Assembly (NCBI GenBank): GCA_018436095.1
Contig: JAHDMJ010000009.1
Span: 62,001 to 126,000, forward strand
Source of the DNA: Clostridia bacterium
GTDB taxonomy: Bacteria > Bacillota > Peptococcia > DRI-13 > UBA5745
Reading direction: 5' to 3'
DNA: 64,000 nt
Shown here: one piece after another, positions 4,524-45,400 of the stretch
How the letters are laid out: each line of letters opens with the position of its first letter
Numbering within the stretch: position 1 is the stretch's first letter
Translations under genes and position numbers: made by a program
The notes under the pieces: generated by a model
Seen by the model: the letters and a program-made list of their open reading frames with translations, nothing else
Told to the model about the DNA's origin: nothing
Databases searched by the model: none

Positions 4524-5855
4524 TTGAAAAAAAACTCTGGGGTAACCGTTATAGGCGCGGGCCTGGCAGGCTGCGAAGGAGCTTGGCAATTAGCCCGGCG
4601 TGGCATACCGGTGACTTTATATGAAATGAGGCCGGTAAAAAACACCCCTGCCCATCATACGGACCGTTTTGCGGAACTGGTTTGCAGCAATTCCCTGCGG
4701 GCAGCAGGCCTAACGAATGCTGTAGGTTTGCTGAAAGAGGAAATGCGGCGGCTGGGCTCTTTGATTATGGAATGCGCCGATGCTTGCCGGCTGCCGGCCG
4801 GTGAAGCCCTGGCTGTAGACAGACTAGGCTTTTCCCAAATGGTAACCGATCGGATTCTGGCCCATCCTTTGATTGAGGTAAGGCGGGAAGAGGTTTGCTG
4901 TTTGCCTGAGGAAGGGATTACGCTGCTGGCCAGCGGTCCCCTGACCAGCCCGGAACTGGCAGGCTATTTACAGAAATTGAATAGTTCTGAGGAACTTTAT
5001 TTTTACGATGCTGCCGCTCCCTTGATTGCGGTGGAATCCTTGGACCAGACTAAAGGTTTTTGGGCTTCCCGCTATGATAAAGGGGAGAAGGATTATTTTA
5101 ATTGTCCGCTAAGCAAAGAGGAATATCAGCAGTTTTATGAAGCCCTGATCGAAGCTCAGGTGACACCGGCCAGGGAGTTTGAGAAAGAGCGGTTCTTTGA
5201 AGGCTGTATGCCGGTGGAGGTTTTGGCCCGCCGGGGGCCTAAGACCCTGTTGTTTGGCACCATGAAGCCTGTAGGCTTAACCGACCCCCGGGATGACCGG
5301 CGGCCTTATGCCGTAGTGCAATTGCGGCAAGACGACCGGGCTTTGACGCTAATGAATATGGTAGGCTTCCAAACCCGTTTGACCCGCCCGGAGCAAAGAC
5401 GGGTTTTCCGGTTGATCCCGGCTTTGGCTAATGCAGAATTTGTCCGTTACGGCATGGTTCACCGCAATACTTTTTTAAATTCTCCTTGTTTACTGGGAGC
5501 CGACGGCCGGTTAAAAACCAAAAAAAATATTTTTGTGGCGGGTCAAATGACGGGAGTGGAGGGCTATGTAGAATCTGCCGCTTCCGGACTTGCCATGGGA
5601 ATCAACGCCGCTTTGGCCTATTGGGAAAGGGAGACAGTGACATTTCCTGTGGATACGGCTATAGGCGCTTTGCTCAATTATATTGTCACTGCCGAGCCGA
5701 AGCACTTTCAACCGATGAATGTCAACTTCGGCTTGATGCCGCCTTTAGAGTCGGCCCCGAAAGACAAAAAGCTAAGAAGTCAAATGATGGCCGACCGGGC
5801 CCTTAAGTCTTTAAGCACTTTTTTGGCAGAGGCCAAATGGAGCGAAGGCATATAA
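4524..5855 (+). CDS. trmFO: Methylenetetrahydrofolate-tRNA-(uracil-5-)-methyltransferase TrmFO
   Basis: Flavoprotein that methylates U54 of tRNAs to ribothymidine using methylene-tetrahydrofolate and reduced FAD. The N-terminal dinucleotide-binding fold is visible as [17 protein letters not shown], followed by LYEMRP and a conserved LVCSNSLR stretch; the catalytic-cysteine-type [14 protein letters not shown] segment and the C-terminal FAD-site [19 protein letters not shown] are present. I chose the TTG at 4524, which sits 6 bases after AAAGGGTG; the GTG at 4515 has no usable ribosome binding site. Only about 15 bases separate it from topA, so the two are probably cotranscribed. Confidence 0.95.
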
Positions 5856-23701: not shown

Positions 23702-23783
23702 TTTGAAACGGGTACTGTAGACCTGTTAAACCAAAATCCCGGCATCGGTAAAGCCATGCGCTGATCCACCGGCCAGGGCTGCT

Positions 23784-24104
23784 GCTCAAAATTGCCGCTG
23801 GGGCAAAATTGCAAGTTTAGCGAGGCCGCTGAAAAAGTCACAGTCCGTATAGTGGCTAAAACCGGATTCACTGTTGCCAACTGCTCAAAAATCGAGGTTG
23901 TGTGGCGGCAAGCAGGGGATTTAACCGTTTTTCGGTTCCAGATGCACAAAAATCGAAGTTGTGTGACGGATTATAGGGCAGTTCTTCGTAATCTGAGCCA
24001 ATTTGAAGGAAATCGTGCAACACAACTTCGATTTTTGTGCACTCCACCCCTAATTTCAGCTCAAATCCGCTGAGGGCCGGATCACAAGTTCGATTTTTGA
24101 GCAG
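23784..24104. repeat. Interspersed CAAAA-core repeat cluster C (6 copies, nested inverted repeats)
   Basis: The 893-base gap 23615-24507 contains no credible gene. Forward copies lie at 23784-23796, 23801-23820, 23881-23902 and 23943-23964; inverted copies at 24020-24041 and 24083-24104. The inner pair (23943-23964 with 24020-24041) is a perfect 22-bp inverted repeat; the outer pair (23881-23902 with 24083-24104) matches at 20 of 22. Most copies here carry the variant core CAAAAATCGA(A/G)GTTGTG instead of CAAAATTGCAGGTTTGT. Transcribed, this would fold as one long nested stem. Confidence 0.8.
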
Positions 24105-24181
24105 AGGCCCGGTATTCATTTTACCTCAGACCGGTAGGCGGTAAGCACACAAAATTTACACATTTAATTCAGGATTTTTAT

Positions 24182-24430
24182 GTTATAATGAGACGATACG
24201 AAACTATCACTATTTCCTATGCCCTTGAAGCGTTCATCACTAGCCTCCGTCTCATTGAAACGCACAGAGGAAAGAGCCATTTCTACAATCGAAATGGTTC
24301 TGCTGAGGCGTTATAATGAGACGATACGAAACTATCACTATTTCCCTATGCCCTTGAAGCGTTCATCACTAGCTTCCGTCTCATTGAAACGCACAGAGGA
24401 AAGAACAATTTCTACAATCGAATGATATTT
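24182..24430 (+). repeat. Tandem hairpin-promoter repeat, two 128-base units
   Basis: Each unit begins with TATAAT (24184-24189; 24312-24317), has a core closed by AATGAGACG/CGTCTCATT (24187-24195 with 24248-24256; 24315-24323 with 24377-24385), then GAAACGCACAGAGGAAAGA, a second hairpin (24274-24283 with 24291-24300, ten pairs) and CTGAGGCGTTATAAT leading into the next unit. The second unit's last hairpin is degenerate. The cores of the two units are almost identical. The related array at 44.2 kb keeps both stems with different bases. It lies upstream of the envelope cluster and may supply promoters for it. Confidence 0.8.
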
Positions 24431-24507: not shown

Positions 24508-25296
24508 ATGGAGCATACTCTTTTTGCCTCAGGCATGACTATACACTATTTTGATACGGACCCCGCCAATGAGCAGGAGCGCCAGATCTTAATTTTTCTT
24601 CATGGTTGGGGGGCTTGCAAGGAAACATTTAGCCCGGTTATTGCGTCGTTAAAAGAAAAGTACCGCATTATCGCTCCCGATTTGCCGGGCTTCGGCAAAA
24701 CCGGAGAGCCGTCCCGGCCTTGGACAGTGGCGGACTATGCCGATTTTTTTCAGGAGTTTCTCAAAGTCCTGGGCCTTGAAAACCAGGCTTTTTCCGCCTG
24801 CGGCCACAGCCACGGCGGCAGGCTGCTGATCAAATGGGCGGCCCGCCGGCCCAAAGGCCTAAAACGCCTTATTCTGATTGACAGCGCCGGTATTAAGCCA
24901 AAAAGGAGCCTTGGTTGGTATATAAAAGTCTACCGTTATAAAATCGGCAAAAGGCTTATCCTGCTGCCGGGACTAAACAAGCTCCTGGCGCCTTTGCTGG
25001 CGGATAAGATAGCAAAAGCAGGATCCACCGATTACCAGCAGGCCTCGCCCTTGATGAAGAGGACCATGGTTCTGCAATTGGATGAGGATTTAAAACCCTG
25101 TTTGCCCCGGATCAAGGTTCCTACGCTGCTTTTTTGGGGGGAGGGGGACCGGGATACGCCTTTGGAACAGGGGCAATTGATGGAAAAAGAAATACCCAAT
25201 GCCGGCTTGGTGGTACTGTCGCCGGCGGGCCATTACTCTTATCTGGATCAGCTTCCTCAATTTTTAGGGGCCTTAGCCTACTTTATGGAACATTAG
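24508..25296 (+). CDS. Alpha/beta hydrolase
   Basis: A 262-residue cytoplasmic-looking serine hydrolase. The oxyanion region is FLHGWGACKETF, the nucleophile elbow is CGHSHGGRLL (Ser about residue 97), the acid is probably in LLFWGEGDRDTP and the catalytic His in SPAGHYSYLDQ. The substrate is unknown. It is followed after 12 bases by the membrane-anchored Mur ligase and leads a five-gene envelope cluster, so an ester- or amide-bearing cell-wall or lipid substrate is plausible but not shown. Confidence 0.88.
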   Translation: MEHTLFASGMTIHYFDTDPANEQERQILIFLHGWGACKETFSPVIASLKEKYRIIAPDLPGFGKTGEPSRPWTVADYADFFQEFLKVLGLENQAFSACGHSHGGRLLIKWAARRPKGLKRLILIDSAGIKPKRSLGWYIKVYRYKIGKRLILLPGLNKLLAPLLADKIAKAGSTDYQQASPLMKRTMVLQLDEDLKPCLPRIKVPTLLFWGEGDRDTPLEQGQLMEKEIPNAGLVVLSPAGHYSYLDQLPQFLGALAYFMEH

Positions 25297-43164: not shown

Positions 43165-44196
43165 ATGGTTGTACTGGACGAAAAAAATAAAATTGCAGCT
43201 TTTGCCGCCGCTCACGAGCTTCACGTTGCCCTGGGCTATTTTGATGGTCTGCATCTGGGCCATCAGACCCTCCTTGATTACGTGCTGCAGGCAGCCGGAG
43301 AAAAGGGCGGTCAGGCAGGCGTGCTGCTCATCGAGCCCCATCCTTTGAAAATATTAAGAGGTAATGGGGGCATCCGTAATCTTAATACTTTAGAGGATAA
43401 GATACGCTTAATTCAGGCTTATGGCGATATCCATGTTTTTATCCTGCCCTTTGACCGGGAATTTGCCGGGTTAAGCCCCGAGGCTTTCGTCCGGGATTAC
43501 CTGGCGGGCCTTTTGCAGATCAGAACGGCTGCCTGCGGCTTCAACTACAGCTTCGGCAAAGGCGGCGCCGGCAAAAGTGAGACTTTATGCCGGCTGGGGG
43601 AAATCTACGGCTTTTCCTGCGGTATTTTGCCGAAAATTACTTATAAAGGAAAAACCGTCAGTTCCACGGAAATCCGCCGGTTTATTGAGAAGGGGCATAT
43701 GAAAGAAGCTTGCTCCCTGCTGGGCCATAGCCATATTTATACGGGCAAAGTCATCGGCGGCAACAAGCTGGGTACCCGATTAGGCTTTCCTACGGCCAAT
43801 TTGGAGCTGAACCAGGAGCTGACTTGGCCGGCTTACGGCGTTTACGGCGGCTTTGTTCAAGAAGAGGACGGCTCTATTCACCGGGCTGTCATTAATGCAG
43901 GTATCCGGCCCACAGTGAAGCAGGAAGACAAAAAGCCAAGCTTTGAGGCCAACTTGATCAATTTTTCCGGTGACCTGTATGAGAAGACTTTGCGGGTGGC
44001 CTTAACGGACCGGCTGCGGCCGGAAAAGACTTTTGCCGATCTGGATGGCCTGCGCCGGCAAATAGCCATAGATGAAAAAAATGCGGTTGAAGCTTTAAAT
44101 AGCTGGGAAGCGGCTTTAGAGAAAAAGCATAAAACTATCGAAACAATTTTTTCGTATAATAAAGATTTCTATCATCATCTGCCTGTGCCTCGTTGA
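43165..44196 (+). CDS. ribF: Bifunctional riboflavin kinase/FMN adenylyltransferase
   Basis: Makes FMN and FAD from riboflavin. The N-terminal adenylyltransferase has HVALGYFDGLHLGHQTLLDY and STEIRRFIEKGHMKEACSLL; the C-terminal kinase has GNKLGTRLGFPTANLEL, YGVYGGFVQEEDG and LRGQKTF-like RLRPEKTFADLDGLRRQI. The family normally ends soon after that helix. Here about 22 further residues (HKTIETIFSYNKDFYHHLPV and PR) run into the hairpin-promoter repeat at 44150 and stop inside its CCTCGTTGA segment. The repeat therefore encodes the protein's C-terminus, probably having replaced the original stop. FAD made here also serves TrmFO. Confidence 0.95.
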   Translation: MVVLDEKNKIAAFAAAHELHVALGYFDGLHLGHQTLLDYVLQAAGEKGGQAGVLLIEPHPLKILRGNGGIRNLNTLEDKIRLIQAYGDIHVFILPFDREFAGLSPEAFVRDYLAGLLQIRTAACGFNYSFGKGGAGKSETLCRLGEIYGFSCGILPKITYKGKTVSSTEIRRFIEKGHMKEACSLLGHSHIYTGKVIGGNKLGTRLGFPTANLELNQELTWPAYGVYGGFVQEEDGSIHRAVINAGIRPTVKQEDKKPSFEANLINFSGDLYEKTLRVALTDRLRPEKTFADLDGLRRQIAIDEKNAVEALNSWEAALEKKHKTIETIFSYNKDFYHHLPVPR

Positions 44197-44383
44197 AACG
44201 CACAGAGGAAAGAAAAAAATTCACCCTTGAATTTTTTCTACTGAGGCGTTAGAACGAGGCGGTCTGCGGCATTCTCCATAGCTTTTAGCCTATATGCTGT
44301 CATCACATTCTCTTGCCTCGTTGAAACGCACAGAGGAAAGAAAAAAATTCACCCTTGAATTTTTTCTACTGAGGCGTTATAAT
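44150..44383 (+). repeat. Tandem hairpin-promoter repeat between ribF and rpsO
   Basis: Two copies of the element seen at 24.2 kb fill most of the 316-base gap 44197-44512. Features are TATAAT 44155-44160, GCCTCGTTGAAAC with CGCACAGAGGAAAG (44187-44212; 44315-44340), hairpin 44212-44223 with 44227-44238, GCGTTAGAAC (44246-44255), closing stem AACGAGGC/GCCTCGTT (44253-44260 with 44315-44322), and a last hairpin ending in CTGAGGCGTTATAAT (44383). TCATCA is conserved upstream of each GCCTCGTT. The stems pair with bases different from those at 24.2 kb, while GAAACGCACAGAGGAAAG is invariant. Confidence 0.8.
44355..44383 (+). promoter_or_regulatory. rpsO promoter within the repeat
   Basis: TTGAAT (44355-44360), 17-base spacer, TATAAT (44378-44383). 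The -35 and spacer form the right arm of the repeat hairpin, so hairpin and promoter overlap. The sister unit has TTGAAT (44227-44232) with a decayed TAGAAC (44250-44255). Confidence 0.8.
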
Positions 44384-44940: not shown

Positions 44941-45400
44941 CTTAGGCGGCAGGCCACTGAAAAGTTGGCCATGCCCTTGCGGTTTATCCAAAATTGCAAG
45001 TTTAAAGTGTGCTTCTCTTTAGGGCAGTGTCAATTTATTGATTTGCGTACTAAATACAGTGATGGATTAGTTGTGTAGTGGCGGAAAGTGGTAACCTAAT
45101 ACTTTAAACTCGCAATTTTGTCTATTTTTTCAGTGGCCTCCTTAGGCGGAGGTTATGGGGTGCAAAATTTCAGGTTTGTCCCCCTTTGCTAAGGCTAACT
45201 GAGCAAAATTGCAGATTTGTGACCTCCAAATCATTGCTTGTAACAGATCTGGCCCGAAAATGGGGTGAAAACCCTATTCCCATAACCCAAAACACATTCT
45301 ACAAACCTGCATTTTTGCACAAAAGGCATAGAAAATCTTTACAAACCTGCAATTTTGCTCAAAGCTACCCGGCGGCAGATACAAACCTGCAATTTTGAGC
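44941..45400. repeat. Interspersed CAAAA-core repeat cluster E (7 copies)
   Basis: The 839-base gap 44783-45621 has no credible gene. Copies: forward 44988-45012, inverted 45101-45120, forward 45160-45180 and 45194-45220, inverted 45301-45320, 45341-45360 and 45381-45400. Two nested modules are visible. In the first, GGCCACTGAAAA (44952-44963) pairs with 45127-45138 outside a 19/20 match between 44989-45008 and 45101-45120. In the second, two forward copies face three inverted copies of ACAAACCTGCA(A/T)TTTTG. GCTAACTGAGCAAAA at 45194 is identical to that at 690. Beyond 45400 the gap holds only a short AAGCAAACAATG duplication and the pnp promoter. Confidence 0.8.

What the first reader, a model, noticed from the sequence alone, without database searches (positions are those of the whole stretch)
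24182..24430. Tandem 128-base unit with two covarying stems: a candidate new structured RNA or transposable promoter element
Two units here and two at 44150-44383 share an invariant GAAACGCACAGAGGAAAG, a TCATCA box and a terminal CTGAGGCGTTATAAT, but differ elsewhere. Stem 1 is AATGAGACG/CGTCTCATT here and AACGAGGC/GCCTCGTT at 44.2 kb. Stem 2 is a ten-pair GAGCCATTTC/GAAATGGTTC here and an A-rich GAAAAAATTCA/TGAATTTTTTC at 44.2 kb. Pairing is kept while the bases change, which selection on structure would produce. Each unit carries a -10-like box, so each could yield a short RNA of about 100 bases whose 3' hairpin overlaps the next promoter. This fits no riboswitch, CRISPR or small RNA family I can name.
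Basis: partly seen in the sequence, partly recalled or inferred. Interest (0 to 1): 0.85.

Follow-up and report, generated by a model that had tools for sequence, protein, structure and literature searches.

The report
Widespread promoter-carrying bacterial mini-transposon family
The repeated unit is one member of a previously unlisted family of very short mobile DNA elements spread through many Firmicutes bacteria, whose two ends both pair with one internal guide sequence and whose right end, in this bacterium, looks like a promoter aimed at the next gene.

Summary
The four units belong to a dispersed family of about 70-165 bp elements: about 28 copies in this genome, 16-17 in its sister species, and 40 or more near-identical copies in single genomes of another family (G285, G360). 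Copies also occur in Clostridium aminobutyricum and on a Selenomonas ruminantium plasmid. Rfam has no match. Only two of the four window units are complete.

Young copies share fixed ends, (T)AT|AACGAG...GGCGTT|ATAA, without long terminal inverted repeats. Both ends pair with one internal guide, GCCTCGTT-GA-AACGCC, the reverse complement of the end-to-end junction except for two core bases. The pairing covaries (39 double-change cells; permutation maximum 23).

Best reading: a non-autonomous mobile element mobilised in trans. The enzyme was not found; Y1 transposase and reverse transcriptase are each absent from several carriers. An RNA role is not supported: A.C mismatches equal G.T wobbles, and young copies show no orientation preference. 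In the window's genus, however, 23 of 25 copies point at a codirectional gene, with a sigma-A-like promoter (T(C/T)GAAA-17-TATAAT) at the right end. So 'transposable promoter' is supported by sequence evidence and 'structured RNA' is not.

The parts
24185..24317 (+). Complete element unit at 24 kb (ATAAT...GTTATAAT)
   Evidence: (R1 134 bits)
24187..24195 (+). Left end AATGAGACG, pairs with the left half of the internal guide (stem 1)
24248..24263 (+). Internal guide CGTCTCATT-GA-AACGC: reverse complement of the end-to-end junction 24308-24323 except the 2-nt core
   Evidence: I8, 16 nt, 88% complementary; covariation
24274..24300 (+). Stem 2 hairpin GAGCCATTTC-TACAATC-GAAATGGTTC
24308..24317 (+). 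Right end GCGTT + ATAAT; GCGTT pairs with guide AACGC
24289..24317 (+). Promoter-like TCGAAA-17-TATAAT at the right end, facing the alpha/beta hydrolase gene at 24508
   Evidence: 10 of 12 matches
24313..24422 (+). Second, tandem unit, right end and stem 2 decayed; guide at 24377-24392
   Evidence: 86.6 bits
44187..44254 (+). First 44-kb unit, left arm missing; its guide supplies the stop codon of the ribF ORF (ends 44196)
   Evidence: 73 bits
44251..44383 (+). Complete element unit at 44 kb, upstream of rpsO (44513)
   Evidence: (137 bits)
44253..44260 (+). Left end AACGAGGC
44315..44329 (+). Internal guide GCCTCGTT-GA-AACGC
44355..44383 (+). Promoter-like TTGAAT-17-TATAAT at the right end, facing rpsO

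Best explanation
A family of short non-autonomous transposable elements, mobilised in trans by an enzyme not identified here. SHOWN: dispersed copies, fixed ends (left AACGAGGC, right GGCGTT) between an invariant AT on the left and ATAA on the right, near-identical multi-copy sets in other genomes, and base pairing of both ends with one internal guide. SHOWN in this genus only: copies are aimed at a codirectional gene with a TCGAAA/TTGAAT-17-TATAAT box at the right end. INFERRED: the guide lines up the two ends (or the circular junction) as folded DNA for excision and insertion at (T)ATAA, much as guide and cleavage-site pairing works in IS200/IS605 elements; tandem units come from insertion or duplication at that junction; in the window's genus the old surviving copies act as promoters of downstream genes, which is why they were kept, or they landed in existing -10 boxes.
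For: Recent spread: 20+20 sampled copies with median identity 99.2% (G285) and 98.6% (G360), sharp boundaries, left AT 40/40, right ATAA 40/40. A copy in G438 is 99% identical to G285's, while coding DNA at the queried locus is about 78% identical. An alignable G431 locus shows no element where G285 has one. Ends pair with the guide: 39 distinct composites, 90% of cells paired, 39 double-change cells in 11 of 14 pairs; permutation mean 13.6, maximum 23; repeat finder (I7, I8). Hairpin covariation: (11 of 16 pairs with double changes). Orientation in the window's genus 23/25 codirectional with the downstream gene versus 17/39 in G285+G360. Promoter boxes. DNA-like rather than RNA-like pairing errors.
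Against: No mobilising gene found: no Y1 transposase (PF01797) in G000, G014 or G360, no RVT_1 in G014, G285, G325 or G071. No autonomous version was seen. The empty site was not resolved to the base, because relatives are too diverged. G325 elements keep only a partly paired left end (AACTCGGC). A variant in G285 and G360 has about 24 bp inserted between the two guide halves, so strict contiguity is not essential. The permutation test does not correct for shared ancestry. Promoter activity is inferred from consensus only.
Confidence: 0.72

Rival explanations
1. An IS200/IS605-derived miniature element (PATE-like): single-stranded insertion 3' of TATAA by a Y1 (HUH) transposase, with left and right guides and a right-end hairpin. 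This is a more specific version of the best explanation.
For: Guides pair with both ends on the same strand; a hairpin sits between the right guide and the right end; insertion next to a fixed AT-rich motif with the same motif at the right end; no long terminal inverted repeats. IS200/IS605 features as described in PMC8612924.
Against: No Y1 transposase in G000, G014 or G360, and only one fragment with an internal stop in G285, despite near-identical copies in the last two. Y1 loci examined in G004, G325 and G071 do not carry these ends. Orientation relative to genes is near random in G285/G360, whereas insertion on the lagging strand should give a strand bias.
Confidence: 0.3
2. An ordinary MITE of a DDE transposase with a very short terminal repeat (AACG) and a 2- or 4-bp target duplication (AT or ATAA).
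For: Target motif present on both sides; MITEs with sigma-70 promoters and in-frame insertions are well known (PMC10969869).
Against: Only about 4 bp of inverted repeat at the termini. Does not explain why both ends covary with one internal guide. No autonomous relative seen; DDE families were not searched for.
Confidence: 0.25
3. A cis-acting structured RNA or small RNA gene (riboswitch-like or sRNA).
For: Stable fold, covariation, a conserved unpaired AGAGGNAAG before the hairpin, and location upstream of codirectional genes in this genus.
Against: No Rfam match. G.T equals A.C among imperfect pairs. Downstream genes are unrelated (rpsO, alpha/beta hydrolase and others). The promoter-like box lies at the 3' end of the fold. 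Young copies have random orientation. One copy sits inside an ORF.
Confidence: 0.08
4. Local tandem duplications of a promoter region, not a mobile family.
For: Units are in tandem at two places, and the 24-kb pair is 95-100% identical.
Against: Dispersed single copies at unrelated loci with fixed ends in many genomes.
Confidence: 0.02

Closest known systems
MITEs with outward promoters, e.g. Correia elements of Neisseria (PMC10969869)
   Same: Short, non-coding, high copy, mostly intergenic, carry a sigma-70-like promoter near genes, occasionally in frame within genes
   Different: No long terminal inverted repeats; both ends instead pair with one internal guide; no parent transposon known
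IS200/IS605 elements and their non-autonomous derivatives (PATEs)
   Same: Insertion beside a short fixed AT-rich motif; guide sequences pair with both ends on one strand; hairpin beside the right end
   Different: One shared guide stretch for both ends; Y1 transposase missing from several carriers; no orientation bias seen
REP/REPIN sequences mobilised by RAYTs (PMC3733652)
   Same: Small dispersed palindromic DNA, often between genes, sometimes tandem or intragenic
   Different: Longer (70-165 bp) and asymmetric, two helices plus a hairpin; no invariant GTAG or CGTC tag seen in the aligned copies; found in Firmicutes
Rickettsia palindromic elements (PMC10969869)
   Same: About 150 bp, found in frame inside protein genes
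   Different: Here in-frame intragenic insertion is a single shared case (L025/L051); most copies are intergenic

Membership tests
MITE | Short non-coding element in many copies with sharp boundaries | tested here: met
MITE | Terminal inverted repeats matching a DDE transposon | tested here: not met
   Only AACG...CGTT shared at the termini; no parent seen, though DDE families were not searched
MITE | Target site duplication | tested here: inconclusive
   AT/ATAA on both sides of 40/40 copies, but invariant, so duplication and fixed target cannot be told apart; empty sites too diverged
IS200/IS605-derived element (PATE) | Ends pair with internal guides, with a hairpin beside them | tested here: met
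   Pairing and covariation only; recognition itself not tested
IS200/IS605-derived element (PATE) | Y1 HUH transposase with matching ends in the genome | tested here: not met
   (absent from G000, G014, G360; those found have other ends)
IS200/IS605-derived element (PATE) | Insertion biased to one replication strand | tested here: inconclusive
   No bias relative to genes in G285/G360; replication direction itself not mapped
Rfam RNA families | Covariance-model score above gathering threshold | tested here: not met
Structured RNA (general) | G-U tolerated over A-C on the transcribed strand | tested here: not met
   8 versus 8 in the hairpin
HEARO / IscB-associated element | HEARO RNA fold in Rfam | tested here: not met
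   No HEARO match even at E up to 10; insertion at ATAA is a resemblance recalled from memory only
Mobile promoter | Promoter activity | not testable with these tools
   Consensus boxes and orientation only

The most novel reading that the evidence does not exclude
The elements move by a so-far unknown guide-splinted recombination: a single internal sequence complementary to both ends brings them together as the circular junction forms, and changing the guide changes the ends (and possibly the target base) that are used, with a mobilising enzyme other than the known Y1, RT and DDE partners.
Probability: 0.2. Interest if true: 0.85.

Novelty: new variant of a known kind. Interest (0 to 1): 0.6.

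Why it matters
Very short mobile elements that carry promoters can rewire gene expression, and this family spans several groups of Firmicutes with bursts of 40 or more near-identical copies per genome. Its architecture (two ends sharing one internal guide, no long inverted repeats, no consistent known transposase) points to a mobilising system that may not have been described, and gives a direct handle for finding it: complete genomes of G285- or G360-like strains with fresh insertions.

Tried and rejected
Rfam at gathering and at E up to 10: nothing; c-di-GMP riboswitch resemblance (CGCACAG) judged coincidental because the rest of that motif is missing. CRISPR: weak CRISPR-DR16 hits are end-of-repeat look-alikes (GCCTCATTGAAAC), no arrays. 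Integron attC: considered because of TTATAAC/GTTATAA ends; the GTTRRRY core does not fit. IS110 bridge RNA: guides complement the same strand at both ends, unlike my recollection of bridge RNA guides; IS110 was not searched for. Y1 transposase as partner: absent from several carriers; a G004 IS200 with ATAACGAGA before its ATG is a coincidence. Reverse transcriptase partner: absent from G014, G285, G325, G071. Phage/virus carriage: none in IMG/VR (three patterns) or phage records. Plasmids: one match, Selenomonas ruminantium pSRC1, none for two other types. Literature searches gave no description of this element; most subscription papers are not in that library.

Full report
CHECK OF THE OBSERVATION. 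Only 24185-24317 and 44251-44383 are complete units. The second 24-kb unit has lost its right end and stem 2; the first 44-kb unit lacks the left arm and ends GTTAGAAC. Folding energies of the complete units lie well below dinucleotide shuffles.

A GENOME-WIDE FAMILY. A BLAST search with the unit already gave 17 places in the genome, and the 18-mer with up to two mismatches gave 12 against 0 for the reversed control. A covariance model built from eight copies finds 28 copies at E<0.01 in this genome, 17 in a species of the same genus (G004) and 2 in another family of the order (G014), and none in the other relatives searched. A second model of the 3' part only confirms this in the class. An exact pattern in named genomes hits Clostridium aminobutyricum, several Firmicutes MAGs, and a few records whose labels suggest contamination. 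The f38 form is 79.5% identical to a copy on Selenomonas ruminantium plasmid pSRC1.

BOUNDARIES AND MOBILITY. Forty sampled copies from G285 and G360 have median identities of 99.2% and 98.6% and identical ends: left flank (T in 36/40)AT then AACGAG..., right end ...GGCGTT then ATAA, all 40/40, with unrelated sequence beyond. One G285-type copy occurs 99% identical in G438, although coding DNA of the two at the queried locus is about 78% identical. At one locus alignable in G431 the element is absent, but the intergenic region is too diverged to read the empty site to the base. These facts are hard to explain without mobility. In the window's own genus the copies are old: the 24-kb site in G004 is a deleted remnant and the 44-kb site there holds one decayed unit.

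ANATOMY. The element has a left end (AACGAGGC), a loop of about 9 to 100 nt that differs between subtypes, an internal guide, a conserved AGAGGNAAG, a hairpin, and a right end (GGCGTT). The guide GCCTCGTT-GA-AACGCC is the reverse complement of the junction formed when right and left ends meet (GGCGTT-AT-AACGAGGC), apart from the two core bases; the repeat finder reports this independently for the tandem units in the window (I7 and I8). Across 39 distinct combinations of left end, guide and right end, anchored on the flank and not on complementarity, 90% of cells pair, and 39 cells in 11 of 14 pairs show compensating changes, against a mean of 13.6 and a maximum of 23 when guides are permuted 2000 times. 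The hairpin covaries as well. Relatedness is not corrected for. Exceptions: G325 elements have two unpaired positions in the left end, and a variant in G285 and G360 has about 24 bp between the guide halves.

DNA OR RNA. Rfam holds no such family. In the hairpin, imperfect pairs are G.T eight times and A.C eight times, so there is no sign that one RNA strand is under selection. Young copies show no preference for sense or antisense relative to neighbouring genes (17 of 39 downstream genes codirectional). I therefore read the pairing as a property of DNA, used for end recognition; this is inference.

PROMOTER ROLE IN THE WINDOW'S GENUS. There, 23 of 25 copies with a gene call have a codirectional downstream gene, most of them within about 200 nt. 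The right end reads TCGAAA or TTGAAT, 17 nt, TATAAT in many copies, with 10 of 12 consensus matches in both complete window units. Either the elements supply promoters, or they inserted into -10 boxes; both give the same picture. Promoter-bearing MITEs such as Correia elements are known (PMC10969869), so the kind is known; I found no description of this family or its end architecture.

WHAT MOVES IT. Guide pairing with both ends beside a fixed AT-rich motif resembles IS200/IS605 elements (features as in PMC8612924; guide pairing from general knowledge). But a Y1 transposase is missing from G000, G014 and G360 and those present elsewhere have other ends, and no strand bias relative to genes is seen. 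Reverse transcriptases are missing from four carriers. Assembly gaps could hide multi-copy genes, so absence is not final. I commit to a non-autonomous element mobilised in trans (0.72), with an IS200/IS605-like mechanism the single most likely route (0.3) and an unknown guide-splinted system possible (0.2).

AN IN-FRAME COPY. In both G000 (L025) and G004 (L051) a copy sits inside the N-terminal B12-binding domain of a radical SAM DUF4080 protein; the 129-bp period keeps the frame and both ORFs are open over the stretch held.

Noticed in passing
L025:1-1722 (-), L051: A copy of the element is read in frame inside a B12-binding radical SAM (DUF4080) gene in two species; the extra ~65 residues include IETHR(G/S)KKIFLQ.
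   Followed up: partly
window 23776-24110: A second dispersed repeat family with inverted arms (TGCACAAAAATCGAAGTTGTGT / ACACAACTTCGATTTTTGTGCA); part of it also matches other places in G004.
   Followed up: no
window 44983-45360: Intergenic A/T-rich repeat (e.g. CAAAATTGCAAGTTT) downstream of rpsO; part of it matches more than 15 places in G004; possibly related to the repeat at 23776-24110.
   Followed up: no
window 44187-44196: The element's guide supplies the stop codon of the ribF ORF, so the last residues of RibF are element-encoded; G004 differs here.
   Followed up: no
L140, L146 (G325:C15:142155-142417): Tandem array of ~73-bp minimal units with compensating changes in the right-end helix (AATGCC/GGCATT).
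   Followed up: partly
L223:15739-15910, L226, L224 (-) 5592-5755: Variant with about 24 bp inserted between the two guide halves, shared by two genera.
   Followed up: no
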